DNA from: Ilumatobacter fluminis
GTDB lineage: Bacteria > Actinomycetota > Acidimicrobiia > Acidimicrobiales > Ilumatobacteraceae
Assembly (NCBI RefSeq): GCF_004364865.1
Contig: NZ_SOAU01000001.1
Span: forward strand, 1,054,001 to 1,118,000
Length of the DNA stretch: 64,000 nt
Direction: 5' to 3'
Of this stretch, positions 12,925 through 18,930 are shown piece after piece. A program made the translations under genes and the position numbers. Within the stretch, counting starts at the first letter, position 1; every line of letters begins with the position of its first letter. The notes under the pieces are model-generated. The model saw only the letters and a list, made by a program, of their open reading frames with translations, did no database searches and had not been told where the DNA came from.

Positions 12925-15138
12925 TCAGCCGATCGTGGTGTCACCACCGGGGACGGTGAAGACATCCGGGCCGGCCGGAGCCGTGTTCTTGCGGATGTCG
13001 GTGCCGGAGACCGTGAGGGTGCCCGTCGCCGAGTTCCAGAGGCCGCCGCCCTCCTTGGCGGCGCTGTTGCGGAACACCCGACCATCGGTGATGTCGGCCG
13101 TGCCGGCGCCGCTGATGTGGAGGCCGCCGCCGTTGCCTGGCGCAGCGCCGGTCGAGTTGGCCTCGAGTCGGACCTCGACGAGGGTCGTCGTGCCGATGTT
13201 GGCTTCGATGCCGCCGCCCGCACGCATCGACTCGTTGCGACTGATGTTCGAGTCCTCGACGGTCAGGTCACCCTGATCGTTGAGGATGCCACCGCCCGAA
13301 CCCGACGCTCCATCCGCGACGTTCTTGAAAAGCTTCGTGCTCCTCACCTCGAGGGTGCCGCCGGCGTTGAACAGACCGCCACCGCCCTGATCGGCTTCGT
13401 CGCCGCTCGCCGTGTTGGTGTTGAGGAACGAGTCGGTCACGACCATGGTGCCCGTGCCGTTCCAGAGGCCGCCGCCCTCGGCCGCTGCCGTGTTGAACGA
13501 GATGTTGCTGTTGCTCACGGTCGCATCACCGGCGCCGGTGATGTGCAGGCCGCCACCGTTGCCGGGCGAGCCGCCCGTGGTGTTGCGGAACAGGTTCACG
13601 TCGTCGATCGTCGTGGTGCCGACGTTGGCTTCGATGCCGCCACCGGCCCGCACGGAGCTGTTGTCGGCGATCTCGGTGCCGGTCACTTCGAGCGTGCCTT
13701 GGTCGTTGAGGATGCCGCCGCCCGAACCGGCCTCGCCGGTTGCGGTGTTCTCATCGATGCTGCCTCCGTCGACGACGAGGGTGCCGCCGGCGTTGAACAG
13801 TCCGCCGCCGCCCTGATCGGCCGCTGGACCCGCCGCGGTGTTGAACGACACCTGGGTGTCCACGACGGTCATCGTGCCGACGCCGTTCCAGAGACCGCCG
13901 CCCTCGGCTGCAGCCTCGTTGCGGATGACGGTGCTGTTCCTGATGTCGGAGTTGCCGGCGCCGGTGATGTGGAAGCCGCCGCCGTTGCCGGGAGCGGAAC
14001 CCGTGCGGTTGGCTTCCAGGCGAACGAAGTCGAGGTCGGTCGTTCCGACGTTGGCCTCGATGCCACCGCCGGCACGATTCGAGGTGTTGCCGACGATGTC
14101 GGTCGACTCGATATCGACGGTGCCATCGTTGTTGAGCACACCGCCGCCGGAGCCTGCTTCACCGTCGGCGATGTTGCCGAAGATGGTCGAGCCGGAGATC
14201 GTCATGGTGCCGCCGTCGTTGAAGACGCCGCCACCACCCTGGTCGGCCTCGGCGCCACTGGCGGTGTTCCCATCGATCGACGAGTTGGCGACGACCATGG
14301 TGCCGCTCGCAGAGTTCCACAGTGCGCCGCCCTCGGCGGTCGCAGTATTGCCCCGGAACGTCGAACCGCTGACCGTGACCTGTCCTTCGCCGGTCAGGTG
14401 GAAGGCGCCGCCGTTGCCCGGCTCGGGGCCGGTCGTGTTCTCGACGAAGGTCGAGCCCACGATGTTCGTGGTGCCGCCGTTCGCCTCGATTGCGCCGCCG
14501 GCACGCGTGGCACGGTTGCCGTCGAAGGTGCTGAACCAGACGGACAGCTCGCCAGTGTTGAGAATCGCGCCGCCGGACGCCGCCGGACCCTCGGCGCGGT
14601 TGCCGACGAACGACACGATCTGCAGGGTGGTCGAGCCGGCGTTGGCGATGGCGCCACCGCTCCCGACGACCGGATCTGCACCGCCGGGCGCGTAGCCGTT
14701 GATGATGCTGAGTCCGCTCAGGACCAAGTTGCCCGACTCCGCGACGTCGAAGCCACGATCGAGCCAGTCGGTGTCGATCGTCGCGCCGAAGCCCGAGATC
14801 CGGATGTCGGTCGACACGTCGAGGTCGCCGGTCGCGCCTGCGTCCTCGTCGCCGCCGGTGTTCGCCAGCGTGAACCGGTACTCACCCGCCGGCAGTGAGA
14901 TGTGTGCGGCGCCGCTCGAGGCCTCGGCTTCTTGGACGGCGGCGCGCAAGCTGCACGAGCCGCTGGCGTCGGCGCACGCTCCGTCGCCTGGGTCGGCGTC
15001 GACGGTGTCGTCGGTCGTATCGACGGTCAGCTGATGTTCGACGGCGGCCGACGCCGAGTCGGCGCCGATCGCAACTGCTCCGGCGAGGAGCAGTCCGGAC
15101 GCTGTGGTGAGCGCCCGTCCGGTTCGTGAGCGTGCCAT
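12925..15138 (-). CDS. Secreted right-handed beta-helix protein with tandem 142-residue repeats
   Basis: A 737-residue exported protein. Residues 1-31 are a signal peptide (MARSRTGRALTTASGLLLAG, cleavage after ADSASA). A CSLREA-type motif follows (GSCSLRAAVQEAEA), which often opens polymorphic-repeat beta-helix proteins in bacteria. The rest is short parallel-coil repeats rich in GGGI/GGGL and N-x-A. Three consecutive 142-residue super-repeats begin at ADQGGGG and end before the next ADQ; a more divergent copy precedes them. Each super-repeat has the phrases GSGGGILN, RAGGGIEAN, GNGGGLHI and AEGGGLWN. AGGGAGGAC upstream of ATG 15138 is the ribosome site. No enzyme motif or cell-wall anchor is seen; a surface or matrix role is an inference. 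Confidence 0.9.
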   Translation of the reverse strand: MARSRTGRALTTASGLLLAGAVAIGADSASAAVEHQLTVDTTDDTVDADPGDGACADASGSCSLRAAVQEAEASSGAAHISLPAGEYRFTLANTGGDEDAGATGDLDVSTDIRISGFGATIDTDWLDRGFDVAESGNLVLSGLSIINGYAPGGADPVVGSGGAIANAGSTTLQIVSFVGNRAEGPAASGGAILNTGELSVWFSTFDGNRATRAGGAIEANGGTTNIVGSTFVENTTGPEPGNGGAFHLTGEGQVTVSGSTFRGNTATAEGGALWNSASGTMVVANSSIDGNTASGAEADQGGGGVFNDGGTMTISGSTIFGNIADGEAGSGGGVLNNDGTVDIESTDIVGNTSNRAGGGIEANVGTTDLDFVRLEANRTGSAPGNGGGFHITGAGNSDIRNSTVIRNEAAAEGGGLWNGVGTMTVVDTQVSFNTAAGPAADQGGGGLFNAGGTLVVDGGSIDENTATGEAGSGGGILNDQGTLEVTGTEIADNSSVRAGGGIEANVGTTTIDDVNLFRNTTGGSPGNGGGLHITGAGDATVSNSNISFNTAAAEGGGLWNGTGTMVVTDSFLNTNTASGDEADQGGGGLFNAGGTLEVRSTKLFKNVADGASGSGGGILNDQGDLTVEDSNISRNESMRAGGGIEANIGTTTLVEVRLEANSTGAAPGNGGGLHISGAGTADITDGRVFRNSAAKEGGGLWNSATGTLTVSGTDIRKNTAPAGPDVFTVPGGDTTIG
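12960..14320. repeat. Tandem 426-bp coding repeats
   Basis: Three DNA copies with a period of about 426 bases lie inside the beta-helix gene; for example the stretch CCGCCACCGCCCTGATCGG-like recurs near 13378, 13805 and 14230. They encode the 142-residue protein super-repeats and make the locus prone to copy-number change. Confidence 0.8.
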
Positions 15139-15222
15139 GTGAGAGGTCCTCCCTGATGTTGTTGACAGGGAGAGTTCGGAGCGCGTGCCGGACCGGATTG
15201 GTCCGTGTGCGATGCTCGGGGC

Positions 15223-16278
15223 GTGGATGCGATCGATGCCCGCCACCGCCACGTGGTGCAGGCTGCCTGGGACGACTACGACGGACGACAGGTCGCCGAA
15301 CTCCAAGAGCTCAGTGCCATGGTGTCGACGAACCGCGTGTACCGGCTCGTGCTGACCGACGGCGAGCAGGTGATCGCGAAGTCGTCGAACTACGGCTCGT
15401 TCTTCATGTTCGCCGAAGACCACGAGCGGCTCCACGAGGTCAACAAGCTGCTCGTCGGCGGCCCGTTCGAGCACTTCATGGCCGACGTCCTGACCCGCGA
15501 CGGTCGGCCGTACATCTGGTACGACGGCGAGATGTGGGTGGCGTTCTACGCCTCGATCGAACTCGCCGATCCGCTGCCGCGCCAGCTGGCCGACGGCCAG
15601 GTCGAGCAGCTCGCCCGGGAGATCGGACGATTCCACAACGCGTGCGCCGAGATCGCGCCCCAGTTGCCGGCGCCGTCGAAGACCGCCAAGTCGGACGCCG
15701 TCAACCTGTACGAGCGTCTCGGTGCCCGCAACGCCGGCGAGGTGTTCGGCCTCGACCAGAGCCGGATCGATCTGGTGCGTCGACACACCCACCGGTTCCT
15801 CATGGCGATCCTGGAGGCTGGGTACGACCAGTGGCCGAAGATCCCGGTCCTGATCGACTGGAACCTCGGCAACTTCTCCGTGCGCTTCGGTGAATCGACC
15901 GACGACTTCCACATGTTCAGCCGGTGGGACTACGACTGGTTCCGTCTCGAGTCACGTCTGCTCGACTTCTACTTCCTGTCGCGCGTCTCGTCGACGACGG
16001 GCGATCGCTCGGTGTGGACCTATGGCTCGCACACCCTGCTCGAACCCCGCTTCCGGCGCTTCCTGCACGCCTACCACCAGGTCGCACCGTTGACCGAGGC
16101 CGAGGTGCTCTTCCTCAAGGAGGCGTACCGGTTCTTCCTGCTGAACTACGTGGTGCGCGAAGGTCGCCACTTCTTCCGCTACGAGTTCTGGCAGCACCTG
16201 ATGCACGACGCCGTCGACGTGCAACTCCCGGCGATCGACGACCTCGACCTCACGCCGCTCCTGGGCATCCTCGACTGA
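15223..16278 (+). CDS. Aminoglycoside-phosphotransferase-fold kinase-like protein
   Basis: A 351-residue protein with the APH/choline-kinase fold. The amino lobe shows VYRLVLTDGEQVIAKSS, where the lysine would bind ATP. The catalytic region is IPVLIDWNLGNFSV (the D-x-x-x-x-N brace, with tryptophan in place of the usual histidine-linked motif), then a metal-binding acid in RWDYDWFRLESRLLDFYF. The substrate is unknown; it need not be an antibiotic. GTG 15223 is favoured over GTG 15205 because GATGCT ends 6 bases before it. It diverges from the beta-helix gene and converges with plsY. Confidence 0.75.
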   Translation: MDAIDARHRHVVQAAWDDYDGRQVAELQELSAMVSTNRVYRLVLTDGEQVIAKSSNYGSFFMFAEDHERLHEVNKLLVGGPFEHFMADVLTRDGRPYIWYDGEMWVAFYASIELADPLPRQLADGQVEQLAREIGRFHNACAEIAPQLPAPSKTAKSDAVNLYERLGARNAGEVFGLDQSRIDLVRRHTHRFLMAILEAGYDQWPKIPVLIDWNLGNFSVRFGESTDDFHMFSRWDYDWFRLESRLLDFYFLSRVSSTTGDRSVWTYGSHTLLEPRFRRFLHAYHQVAPLTEAEVLFLKEAYRFFLLNYVVREGRHFFRYEFWQHLMHDAVDVQLPAIDDLDLTPLLGILD

Positions 16279-16288
16279 CCCCCTCTCG

Positions 16289-16861
16289 TCAGGTCAGGGC
16301 GTGTTCTCGGCGGCCGATCAGGCGGCGGATGTTGCCGAGGTGGCGCGCCATCACGAGCAGGCACAGCCCGATCGTGGCGAACACCTCCCACCACTCCTGG
16401 CGGACCACGCCGACCCCGACCGGCAGCAGCACGATCCCGATGATCGAGGCGAGTGATGCCTTCTTCGTCAACCTCGACACCGCCAGCCAGATCACGGCGA
16501 GCGCAAGGATGACGAGTGGCGAGATCACGATGAAGACGCCGGCGCCGGTGGCGACGCCCTTGCCGCCCCGGAACCTCGTCCAGATCGGGAAAACGTGCCC
16601 GACGATCGCCGCGGCGCCGAGGACGTAGCCCGCAACGCGACCGTCGATCAGCAGACCGGCACCAGCCGCGACGGCGCCCTTGGCGGCGTCGAGCACGAAG
16701 ACCCAGATGCCCCGCTTCCACCCGAGGACTCGCGTCACGTTCGACGCACCCGGGTTGCCCGACCCGACCTGTCGGATGTCGACGCCGTTCGCTCGCGCGA
16801 CCCACATCGCGCTGGGGAACGTCCCGACCAGATAGGCGATCGGGATCAACAGCCACCACAT
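16289..16861 (-). CDS. plsY: Acyl-phosphate:glycerol-3-phosphate acyltransferase
   Basis: Membrane enzyme that acylates glycerol-3-phosphate from acyl-phosphate, the first step of phospholipid synthesis. The 190 residues have five hydrophobic segments and the three PlsY motifs: GSGNPGASNV, GHVFPIWTRFRGGKGVAT and ARHLGNIRRL. The ATG lies six bases after the mftC stop, so plsY is translated from the mycofactocin operon transcript or shares it. A functional link with mycofactocin is not known; the pairing may be chance or local. Confidence 0.95.
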   Translation of the reverse strand: MWWLLIPIAYLVGTFPSAMWVARANGVDIRQVGSGNPGASNVTRVLGWKRGIWVFVLDAAKGAVAAGAGLLIDGRVAGYVLGAAAIVGHVFPIWTRFRGGKGVATGAGVFIVISPLVILALAVIWLAVSRLTKKASLASIIGIVLLPVGVGVVRQEWWEVFATIGLCLLVMARHLGNIRRLIGRREHALT

Positions 16862-16867
16862 GGTGGC

Positions 16868-18004
16868 CTACCGGCGGCCGAGTGCGACCGGGACGGGTCG
16901 TGGTGGCTTGGAGTGGTCGGCCATCGGGCGCGGTGCGGTGCCGGCCCCGACGCCGGCGAGGGCGAGTTCGCCGTCGCCGCCGACGCATTCGGGGTCGGGA
17001 CCGTCGAGCGGGAGCCCGGTGAAGAACTTGGCGGCCATACACCCGCCCTGGCACGCGTCGTACGAGCCGCACGACGCGCACGCTCCCGCCGACTGCGGCT
17101 GACGGAGTTCGGTGAACAACTCGCTCTGCTTCCAGATCTGCGAGAAGCCACCGGTGTCGCGGACGTTGCCGGCCTTGAACTCGTCGTGGATCACGAACGG
17201 GCACGCGTACACGTCACCGATCGGGTCGATCAGACACACCACACGACCCGCACCGCAGAGGTTGAGACCGGGCAGGTTCTCGTCGCCGAGCGCGTTCAGG
17301 TGGAAGAACGAGTCGCCGGTGAGGACGTTGTCGCCGTGGGCGAGCAGCCACTCGTAGATCTGACGCTGCTGTGCGTTCGTGGGATGCAGGTCGTGCCACG
17401 CATCCGCGCCGCGCCCCGACGGGCGGAGCCGGGTGATGCGCAGCTGGGCGCCGTAGGAGTCCGCCAGTGCTTTGAACTCGTCGAGCTGGTCGACGTTGTG
17501 TCGCGTCACCACGACCGAGATCTTGAACGGGCCGTTGCGTTCGACGAATCCGGCGTCGCGCAGGTGGTCCATCGCCGCGATCGCCGTCGCGTACGACCCC
17601 GCACCGCGGACGGCATCGTTCGTGACGGCATCGGTGCCGTCGAGGCTGATCTGGATGTCGAGGTAATCGAGCTCGGTGAGTCGCTTCGCCTTGGCAGCGT
17701 CGATGAACGCGCCGTTGGTCGAGAACTTCACGCCGATGCCCTTGCCGATCGAGTACTCGACCAGCTCGAAGAAATCACGGCGGATCATCGGCTCGCCACC
17801 ACCGATGTTGATGTAGAACACCTGCAGATCGTGCAACTCGTCGAGCACGGCCTTGGCCTCGGCGGTGGTCAGTTCGCGCGGATCACGACGACCCGACGAC
17901 GACAGGCAGTGCACACACTCCAGGTTGCACGCGTACGTGAGTTCCCACGTGAGACAGATCGGGGCGTCGAGGCCACCTTTGAGTTGCTCAACCAGTGCGG
18001 TCAC
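16868..18004 (-). CDS. mftC: Mycofactocin radical SAM maturase
   Basis: A 378-residue radical SAM/SPASM enzyme. Known MftC proteins decarboxylate the carboxy-terminal tyrosine of MftA and then crosslink the last valine and tyrosine-derived unit. The SAM cluster motif is YACNLECVHC (Cys26, Cys30, Cys33), followed by FYINIGGGEPM and ISLDGTD. The SPASM region has CGAGRVVCLIDPIGDVYAC, CASCGSYDACQGGC and a last Cys in DPECV. GTG 18004 overlaps the end of mftB by 17 bases, implying coupled translation. The order mftA-mftB-mftC is standard, but mftD, mftE and mftF do not follow; plsY does. Confidence 0.93.
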   Translation of the reverse strand: MTALVEQLKGGLDAPICLTWELTYACNLECVHCLSSSGRRDPRELTTAEAKAVLDELHDLQVFYINIGGGEPMIRRDFFELVEYSIGKGIGVKFSTNGAFIDAAKAKRLTELDYLDIQISLDGTDAVTNDAVRGAGSYATAIAAMDHLRDAGFVERNGPFKISVVVTRHNVDQLDEFKALADSYGAQLRITRLRPSGRGADAWHDLHPTNAQQRQIYEWLLAHGDNVLTGDSFFHLNALGDENLPGLNLCGAGRVVCLIDPIGDVYACPFVIHDEFKAGNVRDTGGFSQIWKQSELFTELRQPQSAGACASCGSYDACQGGCMAAKFFTGLPLDGPDPECVGGDGELALAGVGAGTAPRPMADHSKPPRPVPVALGRR

Positions 18005-18275
18005 GGAGCATCTCCGAATCGAGCAGGGACGCAATCGCCTTCGCGAACGCGTCGTGACGGGCAGGATCGATGTCGCACGCCACCAGTGCGTCGGCGACCG
18101 TGTCGTGGTCGTCGAGCGCCTCGACCACACGCACGACGTCGAGATGCTTCAGGAACACCAGGCGACGCGTGTCGTAGTGATAGGCGAGCGCGCCGAACGG
18201 CTCCGGGCGCAACGCGACCTGCGGATGCAGGCCGAGCGAACGCCCCAAGACCGGGTGGGCGGCGACAGTGGGCAC
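17988..18275 (-). CDS. mftB: Mycofactocin precursor-binding chaperone (RRE protein)
   Basis: A 95-residue protein in the position and with the features of MftB, the PqqD-like recognition-element protein that presents the precursor peptide to MftC. It has LHPQVALRPEPFGALAYHYD and TRRLVFLKHLDVVRVVEAL, the strand-rich segment typical of these chaperones, then a helical tail ending SEMLRDRTG. The GTG at 18275 lies seven bases after the mftA stop. Assignment rests on both sequence and the flanking mftA and mftC. Confidence 0.92.
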   Translation of the reverse strand: MPTVAAHPVLGRSLGLHPQVALRPEPFGALAYHYDTRRLVFLKHLDVVRVVEALDDHDTVADALVACDIDPARHDAFAKAIASLLDSEMLRDRTG

Positions 18276-18282
18276 GGCGGGC

Positions 18283-18423
18283 TCAGTACACCCCGCACAT
18301 GCCGTCGATCGAGATCTCCTCGATCAACTGCTCCTCGACGACCTGCTCATCGGCGGTCGCCTGAACGGCGGCGGTCTCGGTGCTCGTGGTGGTGACGTCG
18401 GCGATGGTCGACTCGTTCTCCAT
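18283..18423 (-). CDS. mftA: Mycofactocin precursor peptide
   Basis: A 46-residue ribosomal peptide. Translated from ATG 18423 it begins MENESTIADVTTTSTETAAV and ends VVEEQLIEEISIDGMCGVY followed by TGA. The carboxy terminus IDGMCGVY is the invariant MftA signature; the last Val-Tyr is the part converted to the redox cofactor. A TAGTGT hexamer lies seven bases upstream, so the message is probably leaderless and the whole mftABC-plsY operon would start here. Five hairpin repeats begin 58 bases upstream of the ATG. Confidence 0.95.
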   Translation of the reverse strand: MENESTIADVTTTSTETAAVQATADEQVVEEQLIEEISIDGMCGVY

Positions 18424-18436: not shown

Positions 18437-18480
18437 CTCGGCCCCCTGGTCACGAGCCTGGTCGACAGGTGGCGGCGTGG

Positions 18481-18892
18481 GTTCTCGGTGGCTGTGGTGC
18501 GGGTTTCCGGACGTGAGCCGCCGAGATCGTTGGGGGCTTCGGTTGGTGGGTGGTGTCGGTGTTCGCGCTGGTCGGGAGGGTGGCGGCTTGGTTTCTCGGT
18601 GGTTGTGGTGCGGGTTTCAGGACGGGTGCCGCCGAGATCGTGGGGGCTTCGGTTGGTAGGTGGTGTCGGTGTTCGCGCTGGACGGGGAGGGTGGCGGCGT
18701 GGGTTCTCGGTGGCGGTGGGTGCGGGTTTCCGGACGGGAGCCGCCGAGAACTTGGGGTGCCTGGCGTTGCGTGGGTTCTCGGTGGCTGTGGTGCGGGTTT
18801 CCGGACGGGTGCCGCCGAGAACTTGGGGTGCCTGGCGTTGCGTGGGTTCTCGGTGGCGGTGGTGCGGGTTTCCGGACGGGTGCCGCCGAGAA
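18481..18892. repeat. Five-copy hairpin repeat array upstream of mftA
   Basis: The 507-base gap between mftA and the next gene holds five copies of a 47-base unit (starts 18481, 18592, 18703, 18775, 18846). Each begins TTCTCGGTGGC and ends GCCGCCGAGA, so each can fold on itself. The spacing is 111, 111, 72 and 71 bases. The first two spacers share GGGGCTTCGGTTGGT and TGGTGTCGGTGTTCGCGCTG; the last two share CTTGGGGTGCCTGGCGTTGC. I see no convincing coding frame. The array is strongly G-rich on the plus strand. Confidence 0.85.
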
Positions 18893-18930
18893 ACCCGCAG
18901 GCCCGATGGGCGGCGGCCCGGCGTGTGGTG

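What the first reader, a model, noticed from the sequence alone, without database searches (positions are those of the whole stretch)
16289..18423. Short mycofactocin operon mftA-mftB-mftC ending in plsY, without mftD/E/F
A 46-codon mftA with the invariant IDGMCGVY end, mftB and mftC are tightly coupled (7-base gap, then 17-base overlap), but the usual peptidase, flavin dehydrogenase and glycosyltransferase genes do not follow; plsY starts six bases after mftC. Either the tailoring genes are elsewhere or the product differs.
Basis: partly seen in the sequence, partly recalled or inferred. Interest (0 to 1): 0.55.

Follow-up and report, generated by a model that had tools for sequence, protein, structure and literature searches.

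The report
Split mycofactocin pathway with embedded plsY
The first three genes for the redox cofactor mycofactocin sit in a tight gene run with a membrane-lipid gene while the three finishing genes lie elsewhere on the same chromosome; this is a lineage-specific layout of a known pathway, but comparing relatives shows that one finishing gene is repeatedly exchanged for a quite different set of redox genes.

Summary
Confirmed: mftA (46 codons, ...IDGMCGVY), mftB, mftC and plsY lie on the minus strand at 16289-18423 with the spacing described. The "missing" genes are elsewhere in the same one-contig 4.78-Mb genome: mftD at 4.653 Mb, mftE-mftF at 3.943 Mb, all over their curated cut-offs; two NDMA-type alcohol dehydrogenases are present too. 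The pathway is complete but split, so no different product is needed. The mftC-plsY order is conserved in this lineage (4 of 5 genomes of the window's family; 26 of 80 best MftC loci of named records). In 15 of 80 loci plsY is followed by mftE/mftF; where the DNA reaches far enough these are followed by the same alanine-racemase-like gene that follows mftF in the window genome, which suggests two pieces of one broken operon. Linked plsY genes form one side of a branch; elsewhere in the order plsY sits beside moeA-moaA. Side result: among 55 mftC-positive genomes of the order, mftD and a FadH/OYE + ETF cassette are almost mutually exclusive (33 / 19 / 1 both / 2 neither), with 13 label changes on the MftC tree. 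G060, in the window's family, keeps mftABC-plsY with OYE instead of mftD. This suggests, without proving it, that the cassette replaces MftD.

The parts
18283..18423 (-). mftA, mycofactocin precursor peptide, 46 codons plus stop, ends IDGMCGVY
   Evidence: TIGR03969 47.5 bits, cut-off 25; only match in the genome
17988..18275 (-). mftB, peptide chaperone of the precursor
   Evidence: TIGR03967 97.6 bits, cut-off 33
16868..18004 (-). mftC, radical SAM/SPASM maturase (GTG start inferred; overlaps mftB by 17 bases)
   Evidence: TIGR03962 608.8 bits, cut-off 265; Radical_SAM and SPASM domains
16289..16861 (-). plsY, acyl-phosphate:glycerol-3-phosphate acyltransferase, 6 bases after mftC; lineage-conserved gene behind mftC
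   Evidence: TIGR00023 147.7 bits, cut-off 137.2; PF02660 161.3 bits; for conservation

Best explanation
This is the front half of an ordinary mycofactocin pathway in an Ilumatobacteraceae-like actinomycete whose pathway genes are dispersed. SHOWN: mftABC-plsY is one tight gene run; mftD and mftE-mftF are elsewhere on the same chromosome; mycofactocin-type alcohol dehydrogenase genes are present; plsY is a conserved neighbour of mftC in this lineage, and in many relatives lies between mftC and mftE. INFERRED from published enzymology: MftB presents MftA to MftC, which decarboxylates and cyclises the terminal Val-Tyr; MftE releases AHDP, MftD deaminates it to premycofactocin, and MftF glycosylates it. 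INFERRED: the lineage once had mftABC-plsY-mftE-mftF-(racemase-like gene), with mftD unlinked; in the window's genome this run broke behind plsY. plsY, the only full-length copy found, probably moved once from beside moeA-moaA to behind mftC, is co-transcribed with it and keeps its normal phospholipid job.
For: Family hits over curated cut-offs. One-contig genome, one mftA. Two TIGR03989 ADHs in G000 (536.6 and 512.4 bits). plsY is the next gene after mftC in 4 of 5 genomes of the family (gap 4 to about 205 bases) and about 4 kb away on the same strand in the fifth. 26 of 80 named MftC loci have plsY directly behind mftC; 15 of 80 have plsY followed by mftE and/or mftF without OYE1. The racemase-like gene that follows mftF in G000 follows mftF in 12 of those 15; the other 3 end at or soon after mftE. 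The plsY start overlaps the mftC stop by 4 bases in 7 loci (nearest-start estimate). 35 mft-linked and 20 unlinked PlsY rows fall on two sides of one branch, support 100/99. In the 20 unlinked regions moeA lies by plsY in 19, moaA in 18, galU in 11 (families named). PlsY motifs: 30, 33, 34 and 34 of 35 linked rows keep four short motifs.
Against: Expression and co-transcription are untested; promoter and terminator consensus scans found nothing. The mftF score is modest (326.2 bits, cut-off 280). mftR and mycofactocin-coupled SDRs were not searched in G000. Overlaps as tight as 4 bases could mean more than hitchhiking. The PlsY tree has no outgroup, so the direction of the move, and the reading of the broken operon, rest on neighbourhoods. 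A strict form of the third PlsY motif is met by only 24 of 35 linked rows, though also by only 9 of 20 unlinked ones.
Confidence: 0.87

Rival explanations
1. Product differs: the short mftABC operon makes an unfinished or different peptide-derived cofactor because D/E/F are lost.
For: D/E/F are not next to mftABC. Some relatives do lack mftD.
Against: All three genes are present in this genome over their cut-offs; mftA ends in the canonical IDGMCGVY and scores below cut-off for the variant-MftA model (19.9 bits against 30); two TIGR03989 alcohol dehydrogenases are present.
Confidence: 0.05
2. plsY is functionally tied to mycofactocin (for example membrane-lipid supply matched to mycofactocin-dependent fatty-alcohol metabolism, or lipidation of the cofactor), not just a passenger.
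For: Conserved position behind mftC and before mftE across a family-level lineage, with 4-base start/stop overlaps in 7 loci. In M. [quoted passage not shown]
Against: PlsY motifs are mostly ordinary; it is the only full-length match found in the five family genomes, so a housekeeping role explains its retention; none of the 50 other mftC-positive genomes of the draw has plsY within 10 kb of mftC.
Confidence: 0.12
3. The separation of mftD and mftEF from mftABC is an assembly artefact.
For: None found beyond the oddity of the layout.
Against: Single contig; G097, also one contig, has mftD and mftE about 160 kb from mftABC and two below-cut-off mftF candidates elsewhere; G006 and G127 have mftD and mftEF on other contigs; plsY follows mftC directly in 26 of 80 named loci, none of which shows mftD.
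Confidence: 0.02

Closest known systems
Mycofactocin biosynthesis cluster mftABCDEF (Mycobacterium type; Haft 2011, PMC3023750)
   Same: Same precursor C-terminus, chaperone, radical SAM maturase, peptidase, FMN dehydrogenase, glycosyltransferase families and Zn-dependent NDMA-type dehydrogenases.
   Different: Not one cluster: mftABC, mftEF and mftD at three chromosomal places, and plsY follows mftC.
mftD-less mycofactocin clusters with a FadH/OYE oxidoreductase (17 Saccharopolyspora BGCs, BGCFlow, PMC11162802, passages read)
   Same: Same MftA/B/C/E/F logic; a relative in the window's own family (G060) is of this kind.
   Different: The window genome has mftD and no OYE_1 match at E<=1e-100. 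The passages read report the missing mftD and the TIGR03997 gene; they do not report mutual exclusion, the ETF genes or repeated switching.
plsY beside moeA-moaA (often galU) in other families of the order
   Same: Same PlsY family and mostly the same motifs.
   Different: Different neighbourhood, and the other side of the PlsY tree.

Membership tests
Mycofactocin biosynthesis system | MftA precursor with invariant IDGMCGVY-type C-terminus | tested here: met
Mycofactocin biosynthesis system | MftB chaperone and MftC radical SAM/SPASM maturase next to mftA | tested here: met
Mycofactocin biosynthesis system | MftE peptidase, MftD premycofactocin synthase and MftF glycosyltransferase in the genome | tested here: met
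Mycofactocin biosynthesis system | mftD/E/F clustered with mftABC (usual, not universal) | tested here: not met
   In linear contig coordinates mftD is 3.58 Mb and mftEF 2.87 Mb from mftC; if the contig is circular, about 1.2 and 1.9 Mb
Mycofactocin biosynthesis system | Mycofactocin-dependent dehydrogenases in the genome | tested here: met
   Two TIGR03989 hits over cut-off; SDR families TIGR03971/TIGR04504 not searched in G000
Mycofactocin biosynthesis system | Production of glycosylated mycofactocin | not testable with these tools
   Needs LC-MS
OYE/ETF-type (mftD-less) mycofactocin system | mycofact_OYE_1 and mft_etfA present, mftD absent | tested here: not met
   G000: no OYE_1 at E<=1e-100, no mft_etfA over cut-off, mftD present
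PlsY acyl-phosphate:G3P acyltransferase | Family score and the conserved PlsY sequence motifs (motif patterns recalled) | tested here: met
   (window row is on none of the miss lists)

The most novel reading that the evidence does not exclude
In mftD-less mycofactocin producers the FadH/OYE_1 (+OYE_2) enzymes with EtfAB and FixCX are a functional replacement for MftD: an amine-dehydrogenase-like flavoenzyme oxidatively deaminates AHDP and passes electrons through ETF to quinone. The window's lineage caught one such swap: G060 keeps mftABC-plsY, has OYE_1 behind plsY and no mftD match at E<=1e-90, while the other four family genomes examined, the window's included, keep an unlinked mftD. Support: mutual exclusion 33 / 19 / 1 / 2 among 55 genomes; 13 label changes on the best MftC tree, 8 forced by well-supported branches; of 10 independent pairs, 8 opposite, 0 alike, 2 without difference (sign test p 0.0078); mft_etfA over cut-off in 18 of 148 genomes, all OYE_1-positive; NDMA-type alcohol dehydrogenase in 31 of 33 mftD-only and 18 of 19 OYE-only genomes. 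The chemistry is inferred, and by sequence OYE_1 is somewhat closer to enoate reductases (143-149 bits) than to histamine dehydrogenase (117-130) or trimethylamine dehydrogenase (85-91). MftG was not searched genome-wide.
Probability: 0.42. Interest if true: 0.72.

Novelty: new variant of a known kind. Interest (0 to 1): 0.45.

Why it matters
It resolves an apparently truncated mycofactocin operon as a complete, dispersed pathway, a warning for genome-mining rules that demand clustered mftD/E/F. It shows that plsY is a stable, lineage-specific neighbour of mftC, in many relatives inside the mft gene run. If the side result holds, there are two interchangeable ways to make the redox centre of mycofactocin, MftD or an OYE/ETF module. 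That would give a probable function to families TIGR03996/TIGR03997/NF038209/TIGR04503 and make the question of how mftD-less organisms make mycofactocin directly testable.

Tried and rejected
Rejected: loss of the tailoring genes (found); misassembly (one contig, similar layout in relatives); a variant MftA (variant model 19.9 bits, cut-off 30).

Considered for OYE/ETF: replacement of MftG rather than MftD. The GMC protein I took from L062 is not MftG (77.9 bits, cut-off 387.45), so the GMC scan with it, which printed no hits, says nothing. Gene lists of nine loci (seven with mftD: L115, L117, L125, L126, L130, L131, L143; two with OYE: L128, L137) flagged no MftG-like gene by a crude N-terminal pattern; the gene caller missed known mft genes in L117, so this is a weak test. 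A TMADH-like active site could not be shown for OYE_1: at the place of the covalent-FMN cysteine of TMADH (recalled) the six OYE_1 rows have Glu (5) or Val (1), and one of four [4Fe-4S] cysteines is missing in the L119 OYE_1, though present in the six rows.

Other dead ends: promoter/terminator scan empty; the convergent gene 15205-16278 had no NCBIfam or Pfam match at E<=0.001. The local gene caller gave no genes in L146, L149 and L162 and few in L152, so the neighbours of unlinked plsY were recounted by tblastn.

Rows dropped or set aside: G016 is not in the MftC tree (its mftC is a fragment); both G064 rows were unlabelled there; G072 and G135 entered the pair test as having neither. That tree has five long end branches, a bootstrap that had not fully settled, and label changes hardly fewer than in shuffles (13 against a mean of 15), so frequent exchange and tree noise are not separated. 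The nearest-start gap of L067 is wrong (its plsY is 2.7 kb away) and it was not counted as adjacent. Of the 20 OYE_1 genomes 17 are over the curated cut-off; G067 (contig end), G077 and G111 are below it. Thirteen further genomes have TIGR03966 matches below cut-off (304-376 bits), among them the OYE-only G117 and the neither-genome G135; I counted these as paralogues. One mftC-negative genome, G087, has a TIGR03989 match over cut-off.

Full report
OBSERVATION. The sequence and the NCBIfam scan confirm the finding. On the minus strand, mftA (18283-18423, 46 codons, ending IDGMCGVY) is followed after 7 bases by mftB (17988-18275), which overlaps mftC (16868-18004, GTG start inferred) by 17 bases. 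plsY (16289-16861) starts 6 bases after the mftC stop. All four score over their curated cut-offs. Beyond plsY lies a convergent gene of unknown family (15205-16278; no NCBIfam or Pfam match).

WHERE THE OTHER GENES ARE. The window is G000:C1:1054001-1118000 of a 4,775,416-base single-contig genome. There is one mftA. mftD is at 4652815-4653966 (674 bits, cut-off 470.85). mftE is at 3942532-3943170 (263.6 bits, cut-off 172), and mftF at 3943233-3944447 (326.2 bits, cut-off 280); their open frames overlap by 16 bases. hmmscan of the three proteins agrees. Two NDMA-dependent alcohol dehydrogenases (TIGR03989, 536.6 and 512.4 bits, cut-off 440) are also present. So the pathway is complete, in three places, and no different product need be assumed. 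The chemistry of each step is as given in the introduction of PMC11778925 (passages read).

IS mftC-plsY CONSERVED? In a draw of 148 genomes of the order, 55 have mftC over cut-off. In the window's family, 4 of 5 genomes (G000, G006, G060, G127) have plsY as the next gene after mftC; in the fifth (G097, one contig) it is about 4 kb away on the same strand. None of the 50 other mftC-positive genomes has a plsY match (E<=1e-15) within 10 kb of mftC (searches compared by coordinates; many of these genomes are in many contigs, and many have no such match at all). A scan of named genomes with an MftC alignment returned the best 80 of 585 confirmed loci. plsY lies downstream of mftC on the same strand in 30 of 80 and directly behind it in 26 of 80. 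Record titles of these include Ilumatobacter sp., Ilumatobacteraceae, Acidimicrobiaceae and unplaced Acidimicrobiia or Actinomycetota, mostly MAGs. In 15 of 80, plsY is followed by mftE and/or mftF with no OYE_1. The plsY start overlaps the mftC stop by 4 bases in 7 loci (nearest-start estimate). Many of the contigs are short, so absence in the others is not always informative.

A BROKEN OPERON. Behind mftF the window genome has an alanine-racemase-N-like gene and a DUF418 gene (L063). By tblastn the racemase-like gene follows mftF in 12 of the 15 loci with plsY-mftE/mftF; the other three (L078, L087, L090) end at or soon after mftE. The DUF418 gene follows in 8 of the 15. Both also lie near mftE in G060 (L052) and G097 (L054). 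So the window genome's two loci, mftABC-plsY and mftEF-racemase-DUF418, look like the two pieces of one ancestral run. mftD is not in the fetched DNA of any of the 30 plsY-linked loci, so its being unlinked is probably older.

HISTORY OF plsY. In 20 regions from other families (fetched), moeA lies by plsY in 19, moaA in 18, moaC in 12 and galU in 11 (tblastn; families identified). A tree of 55 PlsY fragments puts the 35 mft-linked rows (five of them one to a few genes away from mftC) and the 20 unlinked rows on two sides of one branch with support 100/99. In the five family genomes the mft-linked gene is the only full-length PlsY match at E<=1e-15; the two further matches in G000 and in G097 are partial, 78-91 bits. 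Four short motifs are kept in 30, 33, 34 and 34 of 35 linked rows; a strict form of the third motif in only 24 of 35, against 9 of 20 unlinked. A single relocation of the housekeeping plsY, with co-transcription and no new function, is the simplest account. A link to lipid physiology is possible, since mft expression in M. smegmatis responds to long-chain acyl-CoA (PMC8728441, passages read).

SIDE RESULT: mftD AGAINST OYE/ETF. G060, in the window's own family, keeps mftABC-plsY but has no mftD match at E<=1e-90. Behind plsY lies a gene over cut-off for mycofact_OYE_1, and a few genes before mftE lie mft_etfA, a FixC-like gene, a small ferredoxin-like gene (judged by eye; no family at E<=1e-40) and mft_etfB. 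Across the 148 genomes OYE_1 (E<=1e-100) is in 20, all mftC-positive, 17 of them over cut-off; mftD over cut-off is in 34, all mftC-positive. The table over the 55 is 33 mftD only, 19 OYE only, 1 both, 2 neither (Fisher one-sided p 1.4e-11, ignoring kinship). The one with both, G064, has two mftC, two mftE and two mftF. The two with neither are G072 (90% complete) and G135 (96%, 240 contigs). Thirteen other genomes have TIGR03966 matches below cut-off (304-376 bits), among them OYE-only G117 and G135; I took these for paralogues. mft_etfA is over cut-off in 18 of 148, all within the OYE_1 set. On an MftC tree of 54 genomes the labels need 13 changes, 8 forced by well-supported branches; shuffled labels need 15 on average, so the labels hardly follow the tree. 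Among 10 independent pairs that differ in mftD, OYE goes the opposite way in 8, the same way in 0 and does not differ in 2 (sign test p 0.0078). In the 80 named loci 13 carry mftD and 30 carry OYE_1; none carries both, within the DNA held. Amycolatopsis has loci of both kinds: L143 with mftD, L135-L137 with OYE. TIGR03989 alcohol dehydrogenases over cut-off occur in 31 of 33 mftD-only and 18 of 19 OYE-only genomes, and in one mftC-negative genome, so both kinds appear to make a cofactor for the same enzymes.

WHAT THE CASSETTE MAY DO. An organism with mftA/B/C/E/F but no mftD still needs a step that makes the redox-active keto group. OYE_1 and OYE_2 belong to the long FMN/[4Fe-4S]/dinucleotide-domain family (domain make-up recalled) that contains 2,4-dienoyl-CoA reductase, NCR, histamine dehydrogenase and trimethylamine dehydrogenase. 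The last two oxidise C-N bonds, and TMADH passes electrons to ETF (recalled). ETF and FixC-like genes stand in the same cassette. Hence the proposal that the cassette deaminates AHDP and feeds quinone. Against it: the enoate reductases are somewhat closer by score, the cysteine that binds FMN in TMADH (recalled) is not seen in six OYE_1 rows, one OYE_1 lacks a cluster cysteine, and a role in re-oxidising mycofactocin was not excluded because MftG was not searched.

LITERATURE. Haft 2011 (PMC3023750; outline, sections 7 and 9 whole, and passages) states that the mftD and mftE families are in most but not all mycofactocin species; the terms 'old yellow', 'FadH', 'electron transfer flavoprotein', TIGR03996 and TIGR03997 do not occur in its text. 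BGCFlow (PMC11162802; passages read) reports 17 Saccharopolyspora clusters without mftD but with TIGR03997, and notes, citing Ellerhorst 2022 (not held), that S. erythraea makes a methylated mycofactocin; that is outside support that mftD is dispensable there. Three named Saccharopolyspora loci here (L128, L139, L144) carry OYE_1, OYE_2, EtfA, FixC and EtfB and no mftD in the DNA held. Searches joining mycofactocin with Acidimicrob*, Ilumatobacter or plsY found no paper. Mycofactocin with 'old yellow enzyme' and 'gene cluster' gave one paper on coumarin degradation, listing only. A looser search listed 15 of 572 papers, of which two hold the word mycofactocin. With amine dehydrogenases, none of 3 papers holds mycofactocin. 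With the family accessions, only BGCFlow. I saw no statement of the mutual exclusion in these; the library is open-access only.

VERDICT. The finding itself is a lineage-specific layout of a known pathway: real, conserved and explained. The interest lies in the conserved plsY inside the mft gene run and, more, in the repeated mftD/OYE exchange that it led to.

Noticed in passing
window 18466-18905: Five direct copies (spacing 111, 112, 71, 71) of a roughly 87-base unit with an internal TCTCGGyGGC...GCCGCCGAGA inverted repeat, directly upstream of mftA; its core is found nowhere else in the window. The near relative L066 has a similar hairpin in the same intergenic space. Possibly a palindromic intergenic repeat family.
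   Followed up: partly
window 15205-16278: Gene of unknown family, convergent with plsY (10 bases apart). Homologues lie near plsY in L066 (91% identity), L055 (66%) and L056 (64%), but in no other of the 30 plsY-linked named loci. No NCBIfam or Pfam match.
   Followed up: partly
L063 11522-13585 (G000:C1 about 3944521-3946584): An alanine-racemase-N-like gene and a DUF418 gene behind mftF recur behind mftF in relatives (12 and 8 of 15 loci with plsY-mftE/mftF). They may be unrecognised accessory genes of the mycofactocin run in this lineage.
   Followed up: partly
G064 (C27, C54, C1; L022, L187, L188): A genome with two mftC, two mftE and two mftF genes, one mftD and one OYE/ETF cassette: both routes in one genome bin.
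   Followed up: partly
G072 (L189) and G135: mftC-positive genomes with neither mftD over cut-off nor OYE_1 at E<=1e-100; G135's mftE lies in two pieces on two contigs.
   Followed up: no
L106 (CAMDER010000032.1): A MAG contig titled Bifidobacterium breve carries an MftC 80% identical to the window's, two ADH matches and OYE_1; the title is probably a mislabel.
   Followed up: no
window 12925-15912 (minus strand): A 995-codon minus-strand open frame with many near-repeated segments (GGGLHITGAG/GGGLWNG-type) overlaps long plus-strand open frames; it looks like a repeat-rich secreted protein. Not examined.
   Followed up: no
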